Shown here: in pieces, positions 1,644 through 13,090 of the stretch
How positions within the stretch are numbered: the stretch's first letter is position 1
Layout of the letters: each line of letters begins with the position of its first letter
NCBI GenBank assembly: GCA_019112765.1
Contig: DXIU01000076.1
Coordinates: 1 to 57,418 of the forward strand
DNA: 57,418 nucleotides
Origin: Candidatus Mediterraneibacter norwichensis
GTDB taxonomy: Bacteria; Bacillota; Clostridia; Lachnospirales; Lachnospiraceae
Direction: 5' to 3'
Notes under the pieces: generated by a model
The model's input: only the letters and a program-made list of their open reading frames with translations
Databases searched by the model: none
What the model was told of the DNA's origin: nothing
Made by a program: the position numbers and the translations under genes

Positions 1644-2297
1644 ATGAACAAAGACTTTAACACATCCCGGCGTTCTCTTGAGATTGACCGCGAGGACATG
1701 CTTGCCCTCACCCGCCGCATGACGGTGAAGCGGACTTCAATCACCCGGATCGCAGGGGCGTATATGGATCCGGACGGGTTTATTGACGGCACATTCAACA
1801 CCCGGTTTCTTAAGCTGTCGGGAGCGGACCGGGCGAAGAATCTGGAGATTGCCAGGACGATTCCTTTTGCGCAGACGAATACCAATCTGAAGCGTTATGT
1901 GATTCCTGAACATTCCAGGGGAAAGGAGAGCATGTATCAGCTCCTGCTGGGAATCCGAAGTTCGGGGCTGGAGAACGATGCCCTGCTTGAGATTTTCTAC
2001 GAGATGACAGGGGAAAAATATCGTTCAGATCATGAGTACGGGATCTTTGTATTTCATGACCGGTATGATATTCCGGCCAAGGCGGCGGATCATGTCAGGC
2101 TGGGAGAGTCGGAGCAGATGTTTGAGTATCTGATCTGCGCGGTCTGTCCGGTTACCGGGGATTACGAGGCGGGAAGCCCGGAGTGCGGGTTTCTCTTTCC
2201 GTCATATGCGGAAGGCGGCGCGCTGATGAACTGCATCGATATTTACCAGTCAGATGCGTCGCGGCCCCACAGAGAACTGGAGGAAATGTTATTGTAA
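1644..2297 (+). CDS. DUF4317 family protein, short form
   Basis: A 217-residue protein behind a good ribosome site (AAGGAG) and a near-consensus promoter. The N-terminal half keeps the DUF4317 pattern: about residue 25 onward TVKRTSITRIAGAYMD, then GTFNTRFL, LLGIRSSGLENDALLEIFYE, a YDIPAKAADH segment and FEYLICAVCPV. Family members are usually nearly twice this length, as far as I recall. Here the block usually found between the ICPV and GFLFP segments is missing (ICAVCPVTGDYEAGSPECGFLFP is nearly contiguous), and the C-terminal half is absent. No frameshifted remnant is evident downstream. Function is unknown for the family. It may be a streamlined paralogue or a truncated copy. Confidence 0.7.
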   Translation: MNKDFNTSRRSLEIDREDMLALTRRMTVKRTSITRIAGAYMDPDGFIDGTFNTRFLKLSGADRAKNLEIARTIPFAQTNTNLKRYVIPEHSRGKESMYQLLLGIRSSGLENDALLEIFYEMTGEKYRSDHEYGIFVFHDRYDIPAKAADHVRLGESEQMFEYLICAVCPVTGDYEAGSPECGFLFPSYAEGGALMNCIDIYQSDASRPHRELEEMLL

Positions 2298-2502: not shown

Positions 2503-2862
2503 ATGGCAAATAATTATTCAAACTGTGAAAAGAAGTACGACAGACAGCTGGCGGCAGCTTTTGCCGTGTACATGATGGCAGGGAGCGCGTTTAAAAAATG
2601 CATCTGCAGAAATCCTCTGGAGGAAGGACACCTCTGTCTGCACTACCGGGAGATGCCGGAACGGCTCCAGCTGGAGGCGGAAAATGCAGTGCTGGCCGGG
2701 GTGGAGGCGCTGGGAGAGAGACGCCTGGCGGCAATGGGAGAACTTTTCTGTGAAGCGGTCTTCTGCCGGAGGGACGGGAAATACAGGGTATGCTTTCTGA
2801 CCGGAGGCTTTGAGGATTTAAAAATTGATATTGACGGAAAAGGGAAAATTCTCCTCAGGTAA
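2503..2862 (+). CDS. Small cysteine-containing hypothetical protein
   Basis: 119 residues from ATG 2503, preceded by AAGGAGG with good spacing. An upstream in-frame extension is rejected because it runs through the terminator stem. The protein has a basic helical start (NCEKKYDRQLAAAFAVYMMAG), a cysteine-rich patch (KKCICRNPLEEGHLCLHY), a long amphipathic helix (about 52-80) and a beta-rich end (KYRVCFLTGGFEDLKIDIDG). Six cysteines in total could bind a metal, but no known motif is recognised. There is no signal peptide. It sits immediately before the TIR gene but is separated by a hairpin and a promoter, so a shared function is only conjecture. Confidence 0.6.
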   Translation: MANNYSNCEKKYDRQLAAAFAVYMMAGSAFKKCICRNPLEEGHLCLHYREMPERLQLEAENAVLAGVEALGERRLAAMGELFCEAVFCRRDGKYRVCFLTGGFEDLKIDIDGKGKILLR

Positions 2863-2954
2863 ATTTCCCTCAGGCAAATCCGGGCCGGCAGATAAATTCT
2901 GCCGGTAAACCTGCCGGACTGCCCCGGGATGGAGTTGTCTGTACTGCAGATGAT

Positions 2955-2983
2955 TTCTGAAATACCGGTTTTCATGGTATACT
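2955..2983 (+). promoter_or_regulatory. Extended -10 promoter before the TIR gene
   Basis: TGGTATACT (2975-2983) is an extended -10. A weak -35 (TTCTGA, 2955-2960) lies 17 bp upstream of its TATACT hexamer. A GC-rich hairpin (CCGGCAGA/TCTGCCGG, 2885-2905) after the preceding gene probably separates the two transcripts. The TIR gene therefore seems to have its own start site 32 bp before its ATG. Confidence 0.5.
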
Positions 2984-3014
2984 GTCTGTATATGGAGCGG
3001 AAGGGAGAAGGACC

Positions 3015-4145
3015 ATGAAGAATAAGCCATATGTGTTTATAAGCTACAGAACAGAATATAGCTGGGAACAGGCGGAAACGCTGCGCGGTATTCTTCAGGC
3101 AGAAGGTATAGAGACGTGGAAGGCGCCCGAGGACATTCCGGCCGGAGAGGATTATCTGAGTGTTTTTACAAAAGCAATAGAGGAGTGTGCCTGCTTTGCT
3201 GTGCTGATGTCCGATGCAATCCAGGAGGATCCGGGATGGAGCAGAAAGGAGATTGAGTATGCCATAAATCTGGAAAAGTCCGCCCGGTTCAGAATTATTC
3301 CGGTAATGCTGGATGATGTTCCGCTGCGGGGTGTGATGCGCATGATGTTAGGCGGATACCAGTCTGTAACCGTTTCAGAATTGAAAAAAGACGACAGAGG
3401 GATCCGAAAACTGGTTCACGATATCCGTGACATTATGGCAGCCGCCGGCAGCAGCGGAGCCTCCGATATGGGAAATTCCGGCAGCTGCGGAGCTTCTGAT
3501 ATGGGAAATTCTGGCAGCAGCGCTGCCTCCGATACGGAAAATCCCGGCAGCAGCGCTGCCTCCGATACGGAAAGATCGAAGGTATATTATGCCGTACGCA
3601 GGGGGAGGAAACCAGGCATTTACAGAACCTATGCGGAATGCGAAAAACAGGTATCAGGTTTTTCACATCAGGAATATAAAAAGTTCAGTTCCAGGGAAGC
3701 AGCCGAGGAATATATGCAGGAGAAGGAAAACAAAGCGTGGGCTTTTGTGCTGGGGGACTATAACAGCGACACCGGCGTATACGGCTACGGGGGCTTCCTT
3801 TGTGACGGAGAAAGGGATTATCCTCTCAGCGGATGCGCAAATGACCCGGATATAAGAACAATGCGTGCGGATGCGGGGAAGCTGCTGGGTATTATGGCGG
3901 CAGTGAGAAAGGCGGAGGAGCTTGGCATACAAGAACTGACGATCCGGTATGATCTTACGGGGATTGAAAAATGGGCAACCGGAGAGTGGAAGGCCGGCAG
4001 ACCGGGTACGAAAGCCTATGCCGAATTTATGAATTCAGATGAGCGCAGGGTCAGACTGAATTTTGAATGGGTAAAATCCGGTGCTGATACGGAGAGGAAA
4101 AGGAAGGCTTCCGCGCTGGCGGGAAAAGCGGCAGGCCGCAATTAA
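3015..4145 (+). CDS. TIR domain fused to a viroplasmin-type and degenerate RNase H domain
   Basis: 376 residues, ribosome site GGAAGGGAGAAGG, ATG 3015. Residues 5-140 form a TIR domain (YVFISYRTEYSWEQA, GIETWKAPEDIPAGEDY, then DPGWSRKEIEYA). E79, four residues after W75, matches the NADase glutamate of TIR enzymes. Residues 145-188 are four 11-residue Gly/Ser repeats forming a linker. Residues 189-234 match the hybrid-binding viroplasmin/RNase H1 N-terminal domain (YYAVRRGRKPGIYRTYAEC, then FSSREAAEEYM). Residues 240-374 are RNase H-like (YNSDTGVYGYGGFL, GIEKWATGEW, GTKAYAEFMN), but three of the four catalytic acids are replaced. The first Asp is L246 (VLGDYN instead of VDGSYN). The Glu is K289. 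The last Asp is about S366. Only D313 remains. I infer an RNA/DNA-hybrid sensor controlling a TIR effector. The next gene erases ADP-ribose, which fits. This is not Thoeris: no ThsA-like partner is present. Confidence 0.85.
   Translation: MKNKPYVFISYRTEYSWEQAETLRGILQAEGIETWKAPEDIPAGEDYLSVFTKAIEECACFAVLMSDAIQEDPGWSRKEIEYAINLEKSARFRIIPVMLDDVPLRGVMRMMLGGYQSVTVSELKKDDRGIRKLVHDIRDIMAAAGSSGASDMGNSGSCGASDMGNSGSSAASDTENPGSSAASDTERSKVYYAVRRGRKPGIYRTYAECEKQVSGFSHQEYKKFSSREAAEEYMQEKENKAWAFVLGDYNSDTGVYGYGGFLCDGERDYPLSGCANDPDIRTMRADAGKLLGIMAAVRKAEELGIQELTIRYDLTGIEKWATGEWKAGRPGTKAYAEFMNSDERRVRLNFEWVKSGADTERKRKASALAGKAAGRN
3447..3578 (+). repeat. Four tandem in-frame 33-bp repeats
   Basis: Units at 3447-3479, 3480-3512, 3513-3545 and 3546-3578 each encode an 11-residue GSSGASDMGNS-like block. 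Units 1-2 (ASDMGNS) and 3-4 (ASDTENP/ASDTERS) are closest to each other, suggesting two rounds of duplication. They form a flexible linker between the TIR and viroplasmin domains and are a likely site of length variation. Confidence 0.9.
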
Positions 4146-4238
4146 AAGGAAGTTTTTTCATCCCTTCAGATGCCCGGAGCGTAATCGATAAATGTCCGGA
4201 GAGCAGTCAATGAAAATTTATTTCACAAGGAGGTGCCT

Positions 4239-6332
4239 ATGAGCCAGAATAACATAAATATTTTCCAGGATACCATGGAGATTCTGGGGCAGGGGTATTA
4301 CATAACAGACGGAAAGAAAATAAAACTGAAACTTTCCCGCCGCCAGATGGAACATGCTTCTGTTTATCTGCCTCACGATATTGAGAAGATCAGTGAAAGC
4401 AAAGAAATTTCCCATACCATTGTTATGGGAAGAATCGGTGTGGACTGTGTAAATATGGACTCTTTTTCTCTTGCTGTGGAACGCTGCAGGGAATGCTCTT
4501 ATCTGCTGAAGGGCAAAGGGGAGAACCGGATCCTTGTTCTGAACCTGGCAAATCCGGTGAATCCGGGCGGCGGAGTCAGGAGAGGGGCAAAGGCCCAGGA
4601 GGAAGATCTGTGCCGCAGGAGCTCGCTGCTTCTGTCTCTTGAAGGCAGGGAGGCCTGGGCTTACTATTCCTACAACAGAAATCTTCATACTTATATGGGA
4701 TCCGACGGAATCATTATTACGCCGGATGTGGAGATCCTGAAAGACGAGAACGGTAATCTTCTTGAGGACTCGGTTATTGTATCGGTTATGACCTGCGCGG
4801 CTCCGATGGTCCGGAGGGGGCTGGAAGGAATGTCGGACGAGGAGTATCGGGAAATGGTTTATAAACGGATTACCGGCATGCTGAAAACGGCGGCGTATCT
4901 TGGCTATAAGGTGCTGGTCCTTGGAGCATTCGGCTGCGGCGCCTTCGGCAATGACGCGCGCGTTGTGTCGGATCTGTTTTATAAGGCGATAAAGGAGTTT
5001 GATTATGACGGCATGTCAGCTGTGGATTTTTTCCGCCGTATCGATTTCGCGGTTCTGGATCACTCTCCGGATCAGTACAATTTCCGGCAGTTTTTCAGAA
5101 ATTTCAGCCATTTTTACCGGGAAGAAGACGAGAAGGAAAATCAGGCGGTGCAGGCCAGGATCAGGGAAACGGAAAAACACCTGGATGCGGTCCGCGGGTG
5201 TATGGCCGGCGGCGCTGCCGGCGACGCGCTGGGATACGCCGTTGAGTTCTGGCGGGAAAAGCGGATTTTTGATACATACGGGCCTGAAGGGATTACAGAG
5301 TATGAGACGGATTCCCGGTCAGGGAAGGCCCTGATTTCCGATGATACGCAGATGACGCTGTTTACGGCAAACGGTCTGCTGGCCGGGGCGACCCGCGGAC
5401 GGATGCGGGGGATTGCCGGGCCGCCCAGAGAATATGTAAAGAGCGCGTATTATGACTGGCTGAAGACACAGCAAAGTACCATGCGGGAAGTAAACCGGCA
5501 TGAGCGCTATACGGAAGAAGGCGGCGTTTCCTGGCTGCTTGATGTGCCGGAACTGTATTCCCGCCGGGCGCCTGGGAACACCTGTCTGGACGCTCTGACG
5601 GCAAAGAATGATAACCGGAAGGACTATATCAGAAATCCTGCGAATAACAGCAAGGGCTGCGGCGGTATTATGAGGGTGGCGCCCCTTGCGCTGCTGTACC
5701 GCCCGGGAGAGAATTATTCCGGAGGGCTGCGGGAACTGGATCTGGAAGGCGCTCAGCTTGCGGCCATTACGCACGGCCATTCGCTCGGCTACATGCCTGC
5801 GGCGGCAGTGACCCATATTATCAGCAGAATTCTGACAGATGAAAATCCGGATCTGAAGGAAATTGTACTGGATGCCCGGGATATGATGGAACAGCTTTTT
5901 GCCGGGGACCGGCACCAGGAGGAACTGATCCGCATTATGAATCTGGCGGTGGAGCTGTCGGAGAATGCCGCGGATGATCTGGAGAATATTCATGCTCTTG
6001 GCGAGGGATGGGTAGCGGAAGAGACTCTGGGAATCTCTCTGTACTGTGCTCTCAGGTATAAGGATGATTTTTCCGCCGGAATCATTGCTTCCGTGAATCA
6101 TAAGGGCGACAGCGATTCTACCGGGGCAGTGACAGGAAATATTCTCGGCGCTCTGCTTGGGTACAGCGCTATGGAAGAGAAATGGAAGGAGAATCTGGAA
6201 CTTAAGGATGTGATTCTTGAGATGGCGGATGACCTGTGTCATGGCTGCCAGATGAGGGAGTACAGTTATTATTATGATCCGGCATGGGAATGCAAATATA
6301 TAAAAATGCACCGGTTTGTTCCTGAAACATGA
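4239..6332 (+). CDS. PARG-like macrodomain fused to ADP-ribosylglycohydrolase
   Basis: 697 residues from ATG 4239, with AAGGAGG 5 nt upstream. The GTG at 4233 overlaps that site and is rejected. Residues 1-285 form a bacterial-type PARG domain (TIGR02452-like). They carry the loop NPVNPGGGVRRGAKAQEE (GGG near 110, QEE near 121), LCRRSSL, and the phosphate-binding GAFGCGAFGND. Residues about 315-680 form an ARH/DraG fold: GCMAGGAAGDALG, the metal-binding ISDDTQMTLF, NSKGCGGIMR, THGHSLGYMPAAA and HKGDSDSTGAVTGN, which supplies further metal-site acids. Both active sites look intact. It should remove poly- or mono-ADP-ribose from proteins, nucleic acids or small molecules in the cytosol. It follows the TIR gene by 93 bp with no clear terminator, so co-transcription is likely. 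Role as eraser or immunity partner is inferred. Confidence 0.9.
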   Translation: MSQNNINIFQDTMEILGQGYYITDGKKIKLKLSRRQMEHASVYLPHDIEKISESKEISHTIVMGRIGVDCVNMDSFSLAVERCRECSYLLKGKGENRILVLNLANPVNPGGGVRRGAKAQEEDLCRRSSLLLSLEGREAWAYYSYNRNLHTYMGSDGIIITPDVEILKDENGNLLEDSVIVSVMTCAAPMVRRGLEGMSDEEYREMVYKRITGMLKTAAYLGYKVLVLGAFGCGAFGNDARVVSDLFYKAIKEFDYDGMSAVDFFRRIDFAVLDHSPDQYNFRQFFRNFSHFYREEDEKENQAVQARIRETEKHLDAVRGCMAGGAAGDALGYAVEFWREKRIFDTYGPEGITEYETDSRSGKALISDDTQMTLFTANGLLAGATRGRMRGIAGPPREYVKSAYYDWLKTQQSTMREVNRHERYTEEGGVSWLLDVPELYSRRAPGNTCLDALTAKNDNRKDYIRNPANNSKGCGGIMRVAPLALLYRPGENYSGGLRELDLEGAQLAAITHGHSLGYMPAAAVTHIISRILTDENPDLKEIVLDARDMMEQLFAGDRHQEELIRIMNLAVELSENAADDLENIHALGEGWVAEETLGISLYCALRYKDDFSAGIIASVNHKGDSDSTGAVTGNILGALLGYSAMEEKWKENLELKDVILEMADDLCHGCQMREYSYYYDPAWECKYIKMHRFVPET

Positions 6333-6450
6333 ACAACGGTTAATTTTTATAACTTCCTGTTTAACTCAGATTCAATTGCCCGGACATGTTTCCTCTGCTA
6401 TTCTTGTATTAGCAAAGGCCGATGCAAAAACAGCATAAGGAGATGATCAT

Positions 6451-7110
6451 ATGTCATTGGGAAAAGTAATCAGAAAATACAGGAAAATCAGGAATCTGGC
6501 CCAGGAAGAATCCTGGAAGCGGATCAGAAGCTGAAGACAGGATCATATGAAGAGGCCTTTGGGTGGGCCAGGAAAAAGCTGGAACAGTATCCGAACTGTG
6601 AACCGCTGATTCTGAATCTCGCGCTCTGTCTTGATGCCTACCGGACGATACGGGAAGTTCCGGACAAAGCGCAGTACGATCCGTATCTGACTTCTTTATA
6701 CACACGCCTGCTGGACAGTAAAGATGAGGCTATACGGATGAGCGCGGCGGATTCTCTGGCCGGATTTTATATGAGGAAGAAGCAGTATGATAAAGCAGAA
6801 AAATATCTGGAGTATTTTTCCATACAGAATCCGGAAAGAAAAAGGAAACAGGCGCAGACTTATGCTGAGACAGGGCGGATGCAGGAAGCATATAAAGCCT
6901 ATGAAGAACTTCTGTTTACAGATTATCAGAGAGTAAGCATGGAACTTCACGGCATTTATCTGCTTGCGCTGAAAGAAAATGATATGGAAAAGGCGCGGAG
7001 CATCGTTCAGAAGCAGGCCGAGGCGGCAAAGTTTTTCGAGATGGGGAAATATTACGAGGTTTCGAGCTTCTTTGAAATCGCTGCTCTGGAAAAAGACGCT
7101 GATCTTGCGC
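6451..7110 (+). pseudogene. Broken XRE-TPR transcriptional regulator
   Basis: ATG 6451 follows AAGGAGATGATCAT and opens with MSLGKVIRKYRKIRNLAQEE, the first helices of a clostridial XRE regulator. The frame then stops at 6534. From 6510, in another frame, the C-terminal TPR part of the same protein type continues: LKTGSYEEAFGWARKKLEQY, then AIRMSAADSLAGFYMRKKQY, then AYKAYEELLFTDYQ. About 50 or more residues (the rest of the helix-turn-helix) are deleted at the junction near 6510. The TPR part breaks off near 7110. The product would be a 27-residue peptide, so the gene is dead as a DNA-binding regulator. Confidence 0.75.
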
Positions 7111-7281
7111 GCAAATGTGGGAGACTGGCTGGAGGTCACTCTGCACAATCTCTGGGATCCGGACCGTCCGGTTCCGTATTTCAATTATCCCACCGTGCCT
7201 CTCGAACTGAAACATAAGCCGTCAGCCCGGGTTTCCCTGAATCCCCAGTTCCTGAGGTATGATCCGGTCTGTGATTCGGGA
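7111..7281 (+). pseudogene. Fragment resembling a multicopper oxidase
   Basis: Right after the TPR remnant, in a different frame, a stretch of about 57 residues reads ANVGDWLEVTLHNL, then PYFNYPTVPLELKH, then RVSLNPQFLRYDPVCDSG. This resembles the N-terminal cupredoxin part of clostridial multicopper oxidases. Neither a start codon nor the copper-binding C-terminal part is present. It ends abruptly near 7281. A third open frame (about 7320-7485) with AEEYSEAESKGLNFPAAFD follows but is not recognised. The stretch looks like a recombination scar holding pieces of unrelated genes. Confidence 0.5.
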
Positions 7282-7466
7282 ATGTGGGGAATCTTCCGTG
7301 TAATGAAGCATTCCATCCGGTGCAGATGCAAAGAAATCTGCGGAAGAATATTCAGAGGCAGAAAGTAAAGGATTAAATTTCCCGGCTGCTTTTGATAAAA
7401 AAGGCGTGCCGCTCCACCAAATCTCCATATTTCTGTGCTACACTGCCCATCAGGGAGGTGCGCGGG

Positions 7467-12454: not shown

Positions 12455-13090
12455 ATGTGTATTTTGGAACTAAAGAATGTTCAATATTCCTACAATAATA
12501 AGAAACGGATTCTGAAGGGAGTCAGCGCGCAGATGGAACAGGGAAAGCTGTATGCCATTCTGGGTCCTTCCGGATGCGGCAAGACTACACTGCTGTCTCT
12601 GCTGGGAGGTCTGGACAGTCCCGGAGTCGGACAGATTCTGTATAAAGGGCAGGATATTGCCGGAACGGGACTTGCCGATCACCGGAAAAATCATGTGGCT
12701 TTTATTTTTCAGAGCTACAATCTGATTGATTATCTGACGCCCCGGGAGAATGTGGCGCTGACATCAAAACTGCCGCCCCTGCCGATCCTGGAGCGCCTGG
12801 GTCTGAGAGAAGAAGAGACCCGGCGCAATGTGCTGAAACTTTCCGGCGGACAGCAGCAGAGGGTGGCCATCGCCCGGGCCCTGGCCAGTGAATCGCCGGT
12901 TATCCTGGCGGATGAGCCTACTGGCAGTCTGGACGAAGATACCGCCGGAGACATTACGGAAATACTCAAAGACAGTGCTCACAGGATGAATAAGTGTGTG
13001 ATTGTAGTGACCCATTCCGGTGAGCTGGCGGATCAGGCGGATGTGGTCTTTCGTCTGAAGAGAGGAGTGCTGATGCAGAATCGCTCCTGA
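12455..13090 (+). CDS. ABC transporter ATP-binding protein
   Basis: 211 residues, ATG 12455 with AAGGAGG. Walker [10 protein letters not shown] (37-45), Q-loop [15 protein letters not shown], signature [15 protein letters not shown], Walker [13 protein letters not shown] and switch His in [10 protein letters not shown]. This is the LolD/MacB-type ATPase of the two-permease exporter. It is slightly shorter than many relatives because the region between Q-loop and signature is compact. It is the last gene before a bidirectional terminator. Confidence 0.93.

What the first reader, a model, noticed from the sequence alone, without database searches (positions are those of the whole stretch)
3015..6332. 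TIR / dead-RNase H fusion beside a PARG-ARH double ADP-ribose hydrolase: candidate immune or signalling module
Seen: a TIR domain with its W..E catalytic pattern (W75, E79) is joined to a viroplasmin-type domain and an RNase H fold. The next gene fuses a PARG-like domain to an ADP-ribosylglycohydrolase. Known: TIR enzymes cleave NAD+ into ADP-ribose products, and the viroplasmin/RNase H1 N-domain binds RNA/DNA hybrids. Inferred: hybrids, such as R-loops from phages, plasmids or retroelements, trigger NAD+ cleavage or ADP-ribosylation, and the second protein reverses it. None of the described TIR systems known to me (Thoeris, CBASS-TIR, short-Ago TIR) uses this architecture.
Basis: partly seen in the sequence, partly recalled or inferred. 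Interest (0 to 1): 0.88.

Follow-up and report, generated by a model that had tools for sequence, protein, structure and literature searches.

The report
TIR domain fused to dead RNase-H
A bacterium of the family Lachnospiraceae carries one protein that joins an immune-type TIR domain to an RNA/DNA-hybrid-binding domain and an RNase H that has lost its cutting residues, which looks like a one-piece hybrid alarm; the ADP-ribose-removing enzyme beside it is probably only a neighbour.

Summary
The gene at 3015-4145 encodes TIR (W75/E79 kept), an RNase H1 N-terminal hybrid-binding domain (HBD) and an RNase H fold missing three of its four catalytic acids. The gene at 4239-6332 fuses a microbial PARG to an ADP-ribosylglycohydrolase, motifs intact. 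The proposed two-gene module is not supported: I found full-length PARG-ARH in four other genomes; three show no such TIR gene in the stretch read, and congener G319 keeps PARG-ARH (99%) although nearly all of the TIR gene is gone, leaving a 5' stub. No other genome searched showed TIR+HBD+RNase H at the thresholds used. The RNase H half groups with active-looking Lachnospiraceae RNases H. The same HBD-RNase H module is fused elsewhere, on several branches, to the RnlA/RNase LS toxin, so here the effector appears swapped for TIR. Best reading: a single-chain TIR effector whose HBD and dead RNase H sense RNA/DNA hybrid (or dsRNA), working like, but not belonging to, short-Argonaute TIR (SPARTA); no activity could be tested. 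Main rivals: a relic fusion in a decaying locus, or a protein-adaptor role. New variant of a known kind; seen once, so interest is moderate.

The parts
3015..4145 (+). Gene 1, 376 aa: TIR - repeat linker - HBD (Cauli_VI) - catalytically dead RNase H
3033..3416 (+). TIR_2 domain (residues 7-134); W75 and E79 invariant among 7 aligned TIRs
   Evidence: nearest solved TIRs by sequence 3h16 (E 5.4e-4) and Cat1 9mud (E 0.0076)
3445..3567 (.). 33-bp tandem repeat, 3.7 copies, coding for the Gly/Ser/Ala/Asp linker
   Evidence: low pLDDT 144-184
3585..3713 (+). RNase H1 N-terminal hybrid-binding domain (residues 191-233); the near-invariant Trp (54 of 56 rows) is Tyr206
   Evidence: block pLDDT 81-97
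3732..4136 (+). RNase H fold (residues 240-374), catalytic D246L, E289K, D366S, also H356G; D313 kept
4239..6332 (+). Gene 2, 697 aa: microbial PARG + ADP-ribosylglycohydrolase fusion; neighbour, probably not a dedicated partner
3060..4214 (.). Stretch absent from congener G319 (L115 matches window 2588-3059 and 4215-6453 next to each other); a 22-codon stub of gene 1 remains there

Best explanation
Gene 1 is a single-chain TIR effector (NADase or ADP-ribose-signal maker). Its HBD and its catalytically dead RNase H form a nucleic-acid-recognition module that probably binds RNA/DNA hybrid (or dsRNA) without cutting it. Binding several molecules along a duplex, or a change of shape passed through the flexible linker, would bring TIR domains together and switch on NAD+ cleavage, giving growth arrest or abortive infection when hybrids from a phage, plasmid or retroelement accumulate. 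Shown: domain content, loss of the RNase H active site with the fold kept, grouping with active-looking HBD-RNases H, and fusion of the same module elsewhere to a known toxin family. Inferred: hybrid binding, NADase activity, gating and defence role. Gene 2 is most likely an ADP-ribose/ADP-ribosylation hydrolase that acts on its own and happens to lie next door.
For: TIR with W75/E79. HBD strongly kept (67.7 bits). Against the human RNase H1 HBD (3bsu alignment) the residues that I recall as hybrid contacts read Y192 (Y29), Y206 (W43), Y221 (F58), K222 (K59), K223 (K60): 3 identical, 2 aromatic swaps. Active site eroded more than the rest: among 37 columns at least 90% conserved in 60 homologues, 14 are lost; of the five classic active-site columns (D, E, D, H, D) 4 are lost against 10 of 32 others (Fisher p 0.057), and with two neighbouring columns (S248, N362) 6 of 7 against 8 of 30 (p 0.007). 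The fold is kept. The frame is open despite 40 changes at 106 columns conserved in its group, where the 17 other rows have 1-27. Precedents: the same HBD-RNase H module is joined to RnlA toxin domains in 5 of the 6 long RNase H fusions scanned (the sixth, L012, is a dehydrogenase fusion without HBD), and nine RnlA-type rows fall in four places of the RNase H tree. PMC3710099 (passages) proposes that this module directs the toxin to DNA-RNA duplexes. PMC5308261 (abstract and discussion) reports that RNase HI both stimulates and restrains RnlA. In SPARTA an inactive RNase H-fold PIWI (V284, Y328, R362, N484 in place of D, E, D, D) with guide RNA/target DNA activates a TIR (PMC11156904, passages).
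Against: The architecture was found in one genome only, and most of the gene is gone from a close relative, so I cannot show that selection keeps it. The HBD tryptophan is Tyr. S248, N285 and N362, which lie at or near the substrate site of active RNases H (recalled), are also changed, so the RNase H half may bind poorly. No clear defence neighbours. No activity data. The strict active-site test is borderline (p 0.057), and the wider set was chosen after seeing the alignment. In most RnlA fusions the RNase H keeps its acids, so they are no precedent for a dead sensor.
Confidence: 0.4

Rival explanations
1. A relic: a TIR gene and an RNase H gene were joined by one of the deletions that litter this locus, the RNase H half is decaying, and the protein has no hybrid-triggered role.
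For: Found in one genome; mostly gone from G319. The surroundings hold other broken genes: a DUF4317 gene covering profile 3-159 of 370, a TPR-type gene in pieces, and a piece that matches part of a multicopper-oxidase ORF of G003. Long branch 2.56 against a median of 0.5. 14 of 37 conserved columns lost, against at most 9 in any other row.
Against: 188 RNase H-side codons stay open: with 0.071 nonsense per missense opportunity, 40 neutral missense changes would bring about 2.9 nonsense changes, a chance of about 0.06 for none (my estimate). Outside the seven active-site columns 22 of 30 conserved columns are kept. HBD and TIR motifs are intact, and block pLDDT is above 90 in most of 191-376.
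Confidence: 0.27
2. The dead RNase H is a protein adaptor, not a nucleic-acid sensor: it docks the TIR to replication or RNA-processing proteins or to an unknown regulator, as RNase HI does for RnlA and RnlB.
For: [quoted passage not shown] TIRs of this kind in the family are modular: joined to a protein kinase and to a SEC-C motif, and, by eye or below cut-off, to zinc-ribbon, Sel1-like and LRR-like parts.
Against: The HBD, a nucleic-acid-binding part, is the best-kept piece of the RNase H side (3 of 12 conserved columns lost, against 11 of 25 in the RNase H domain).
Confidence: 0.2
3. First reader's module: TIR-RNase H makes ADP-ribose products or ADP-ribosylates a target, and PARG-ARH next door reverses it (effector plus antidote).
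For: Same strand, 93-bp gap, no terminator-like site on the + strand between them, though a promoter-like site (9 of 12) lies at 4222-4250 over the start of gene 2. The G319 stub suggests that the adjacency predates the split of two species. Macro domains of anti-phage TIR systems are predicted to regulate them (PMC9503650, passage).
Against: PARG-ARH differs between G000 and G319 by 15 synonymous and 9 non-synonymous codons (dN/dS about 0.17), so it looks constrained although G319 lost the TIR. The other three full-length PARG-ARH loci have no TIR of this kind in the stretches read (L097, L098, L125; in L098 one side is cut by the contig end). In the four genomes with both kinds of match the genes lie on different contigs (G154, G188, G212, G234). 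Free ADP-ribose, a usual TIR product, is not the bond that these hydrolases cut (recalled).
Confidence: 0.1

Closest known systems
RnlA / RNase LS toxins with N-terminal HBD-RNase H (HEPN family)
   Same: Same Cauli_VI + RNase H module on one chain with a cell-killing effector, some in the same bacterial family; described in PMC3710099 (passages)
   Different: Effector is RnlA, not TIR; module N-terminal, not C-terminal; catalytic acids kept there except one D to N in L026 but lost here; no RnlB-like partner recognised beside gene 1
SPARTA (short prokaryotic Argonaute + TIR-APAZ)
   Same: TIR coupled to a catalytically dead RNase H fold that meets an RNA/DNA hybrid (PMC11156904, passages)
   Different: No PIWI, MID or APAZ domain in the Pfam scan; RNase H1 with HBD rather than PIWI; one protein rather than a heterodimer; no guide known
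HBD-type RNases H of Lachnospiraceae
   Same: Relatives of the C-terminal half, closest matches 45-49% identical
   Different: They keep the D-E-D-D site and carry no TIR
Bacterial PARG (microbial type, TIGR02452) and ARH/DraG hydrolases
   Same: Both halves of gene 2 with motifs
   Different: Here fused in one chain; four other full-length fusions found

Membership tests
TIR domain (TIR_2) | Sequence family match and W...E pair | tested here: met
   E 7.5e-18, 65.6 bits over a cut-off of 28; W75 and E79 invariant in 7 rows; catalytic role recalled
TIR NADase | NAD+ cleavage | not testable with these tools
   no assay
Catalytic RNase H1 | RNase H fold | tested here: met
Catalytic RNase H1 | D-E-D-D catalytic acids | tested here: not met
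   L, K, D, S at the four places
RNase H1 hybrid-binding domain | Cauli_VI profile match | tested here: met
   67.7 bits over a cut-off of 21
RNase H1 hybrid-binding domain | Binding of RNA/DNA hybrid | not testable with these tools
   Trp to Tyr at 206, lysines 222 and 223 kept
SPARTA / short pAgo-TIR | MID-PIWI and APAZ domains | tested here: not met
   Pfam scan up to E 10 lists only Cauli_VI, TIR_2, TIR, RVT_3 for gene 1; PADLOC Aga_TIR matches lie in the TIR part only
RnlA / RNase LS | RnlA toxin / HEPN domain | tested here: not met
   absent from the Pfam scan of gene 1; present in 5 of 6 long RNase H fusions scanned
CBASS-TIR | SAVED domain on the TIR protein | tested here: not met
   no SAVED in the Pfam scan; the PADLOC SAVED_TIR model (E 6.2e-11) matches only residues 6-94
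Thoeris | ThsA-type partner | tested here: inconclusive
   adjacent genes are PARG-ARH and a 119-aa ORF without a family; the rest of the genome was not searched for ThsA
Two-gene effector/antidote module | Conserved adjacency | tested here: not met
   0 of 47 other PARG/ARH loci carry this kind of TIR; TIR gene mostly gone from G319
Microbial PARG | Family match and GGG...QEE signature | tested here: met
   TIGR02452 162.1 bits over a cut-off of 50; motif read, its meaning recalled
ADP-ribosylglycohydrolase (ARH/DraG) | Family match and metal-site aspartates | tested here: met
   211.5 bits over a cut-off of 26.2; SDDTQMT and GDSDSTG read, their meaning recalled

The most novel reading that the evidence does not exclude
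A one-polypeptide RNA/DNA-hybrid alarm: an RNase H1 that gave up cutting and became the sensor of a TIR NADase. It would have arisen independently of Argonaute-type systems and in parallel with the RnlA toxins that use the same module, which would make HBD-RNase H a general exchangeable sensor cassette for bacterial suicide effectors.
Probability: 0.3. Interest if true: 0.75.

Novelty: new variant of a known kind. Interest (0 to 1): 0.5.

Why it matters
If true, it would show that bacteria can convert a housekeeping enzyme of RNA/DNA hybrids into a non-cutting detector wired to NAD+ destruction, and it would tie together two scattered observations (short Argonaute-TIR, and RnlA toxins with RNase H modules) under one idea: RNase H folds as exchangeable hybrid sensors. 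It is a single gene, so the idea is directly testable in vitro. Being found in one genome and mostly deleted in a neighbour limits its weight.

Tried and rejected
(1) PARG-ARH as obligate partner: rejected on neighbourhoods. (2) More copies of the full architecture: no row spanning all three domains in the 298 other genomes of the family, 57 congeners, 390 others of the class (E 1e-15), 391 of the order and 397 of the phylum (at the stricter E 1e-30; the sets overlap); none among the 31 loci of a contig scan that reaches close relatives only and may leave out the window's own record; 0 of 51 phage and 0 of 17 plasmid records with a match cover 80% of the protein; 2 viral loci match the RNase H part only. 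The row G200:C27 that seemed to span TIR and HBD (query 7-235) is a TIR with a zinc-ribbon-like part and no Cauli_VI. The row G368:C18 (query 6-173) ends before the HBD and was not examined. (3) Viral relatives of gene 2 and of the TIR alignment: none confirmed. (4) Defence-island test: PADLOC on 10 neighbouring ORFs. The strongest match, mad3 (E 7e-31) to the ABC ATPase at 12455-13087, I put down to general ABC-ATPase likeness, as that gene follows two ABC-permease-like ORFs; mad1 matched the MerR-type regulator at 471-1397 (E 3.3e-11) and weakly an HTH gene; HTH_VI, RmrA and PD-T4-6 matches lie in HTH or receiver parts. I did not test for complete systems. (5) Other fused frames: L012/L039 is a dehydrogenase joined to an active-looking RNase H; L141 is RNase H with a C-terminal extension. 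(6) A Foldseek search and a structure job for gene 2 could not be run. (7) Print: no paper describing TIR joined to viroplasmin/HBD/RNase H turned up in searches of an open-access library, judged from listings and the passages of the papers opened; most subscription papers are not in it.
Full report
What is there. The window comes from a draft genome of 2.6 Mb in 137 contigs. Its family is Lachnospiraceae: the same-family genome G257 holds the contig and protein of the named Lachnospiraceae locus L039 (both contigs 171,529 bases). Gene 1 (3015-4145, +, 376 aa) has TIR_2 (7-134), a linker of 33-bp repeats (3445-3567), the RNase H1 N-terminal domain Cauli_VI (191-233) and an RNase H-like end (RVT_3, below cut-off). 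Gene 2 (4239-6332, +, 697 aa) has a microbial PARG and an ADP-ribosylglycohydrolase.

Where it came from. In a tree of 60 RNase H domains, gene 1 sits on a long branch (2.56, median 0.5) in a group (support 97/98) with 17 other RNases H that all keep the acids, among them one dehydrogenase fusion (L012) and one with a long extension (L053); its exact sister is not resolved (86/32). The window's genome has no second RNase H match to gene 1 at E 0.001, and only 1 of 57 congeners has one at E 1e-10, so the module is not a recent local copy as far as seen. The same HBD-RNase H module is elsewhere joined to RnlA/RNase LS toxin domains: 5 of the 6 long RNase H fusions that I scanned carry them, and nine rows labelled so (five scanned, four by likeness) fall in four places of the tree; long branches make some of these joins unsure. 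The HEPN survey (PMC3710099, passages) noted this module on RNase LS toxins and suggested DNA-RNA duplexes as targets. RNase HI itself stimulates E. coli RnlA and is needed for its inhibition by RnlB (PMC5308261, abstract and discussion). So the module has a history of being wired to a suicide effector. Gene 1 looks like the same idea with TIR as the effector, the module at the other end of the chain and without catalysis.

The TIR. It belongs to a modular set of TIRs in these bacteria, 35-40% identical to it, all six aligned relatives with W75 and E79. One is joined to a protein kinase and one to a SEC-C motif; others, by eye or below cut-off, to zinc-ribbon, Sel1-like and LRR-like parts. The nearest solved structures by sequence are PdTIR 3h16 and Cat1. 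Enzyme activity is inferred from family knowledge, not shown.

The neighbour. Of 299 genomes of the family, 58 match gene 2 at E 1e-20 or better, but only 3 (own, G003, G017) match along the whole query. Of 58 genomes of the genus, 4 match and 3 (own, G319, G299) are full length. Among 141 fetched loci, 49 hold a PARG or ARH relative; TIR and PARG/ARH occur together only in L001 and L065, both this same place. Limits: this TIR was the query, so divergent TIRs may be missed; many loci extend only 1.5 kb; some loci overlap. In G299 the PARG-ARH lies between a Macro-domain gene and a protein-kinase gene, with a vWA-like gene nearby; in G017 beside LRR/fn3 and lipase-like genes; in G003 beside DUF2935 and, next but one, a multicopper-oxidase ORF.

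A natural experiment. In congener G319 the contig L115 (4064 bp) matches window 2588-3059 (95.1%) directly followed by 4215-6453 (98.7%). The missing 3060-4214 is all but the first 45 bases of gene 1. What remains reads MKNKPYVFIICRTEYHFTRRRL and a stop that overlaps the start of gene 2. The stub suggests that the ancestor had the TIR start here, so this is most simply a deletion in G319; whether the RNase H part was already joined cannot be told. Gene 2 survived it with 15 synonymous and 9 non-synonymous codon differences (dN/dS about 0.17 by simple counting). This rests on one short contig of a draft genome. Four congeners that share the downstream sensor kinase (L136-L139) show neither gene 1 nor gene 2 upstream of it in the stretches read, so the pair occupies a variable place. 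Broken genes around it show that the place loses genes.

Mechanism and judgement. Best reading: HBD plus dead RNase H binds hybrid (or dsRNA) without destroying it and thereby gathers or unlocks TIR domains, which deplete or convert NAD+. It would work like SPARTA, where an inactive RNase H-fold PIWI holding guide RNA/target DNA activates TIRs (PMC11156904, passages), but it is not a member: no PIWI, MID or APAZ. Gene 2 probably acts on its own; bacterial PARGs can protect against an RNA-modifying toxin (PMC11833690, abstract and one section). Against this: single genome, loss in a relative, a changed HBD tryptophan, changed substrate-site residues, no clear defence neighbours. A relic fusion remains a serious rival.

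Noticed in passing
window 1644-2294: DUF4317 gene that matches only profile positions 3-159 of 370: looks truncated.
   Followed up: no
window 6451-7372: Pieces of a TPR-type gene (HTH start by eye) and a stretch (7111-7340) that matches part of a 1229-aa multicopper-oxidase ORF lying second downstream of the PARG-ARH in G003 (L097:11520-15206), suggesting old synteny and gene loss.
   Followed up: partly
L026:1459-3174, L043:136-1611, L046:6700-8301, L048:7974-9494, L050:565-1971: HBD-RNase H fused to RnlA toxin domains, in several places of the RNase H tree: repeated effector fusion.
   Followed up: partly
L125:5934-11173: Full-length PARG-ARH flanked by Macro-domain and protein-kinase genes, with a vWA-like gene, in congener G299: a possible ADP-ribose/phospho-signalling cluster.
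   Followed up: no
L086:256-2547: FHA domain fused to an ADP-ribosylglycohydrolase.
   Followed up: no
L012:760-2013 (same protein as L039:7161-8414): Short-chain dehydrogenase fused to an active-looking RNase H without a recognised HBD.
   Followed up: no
L108:6437-7756: TIR fused to a protein kinase in G154.
   Followed up: no
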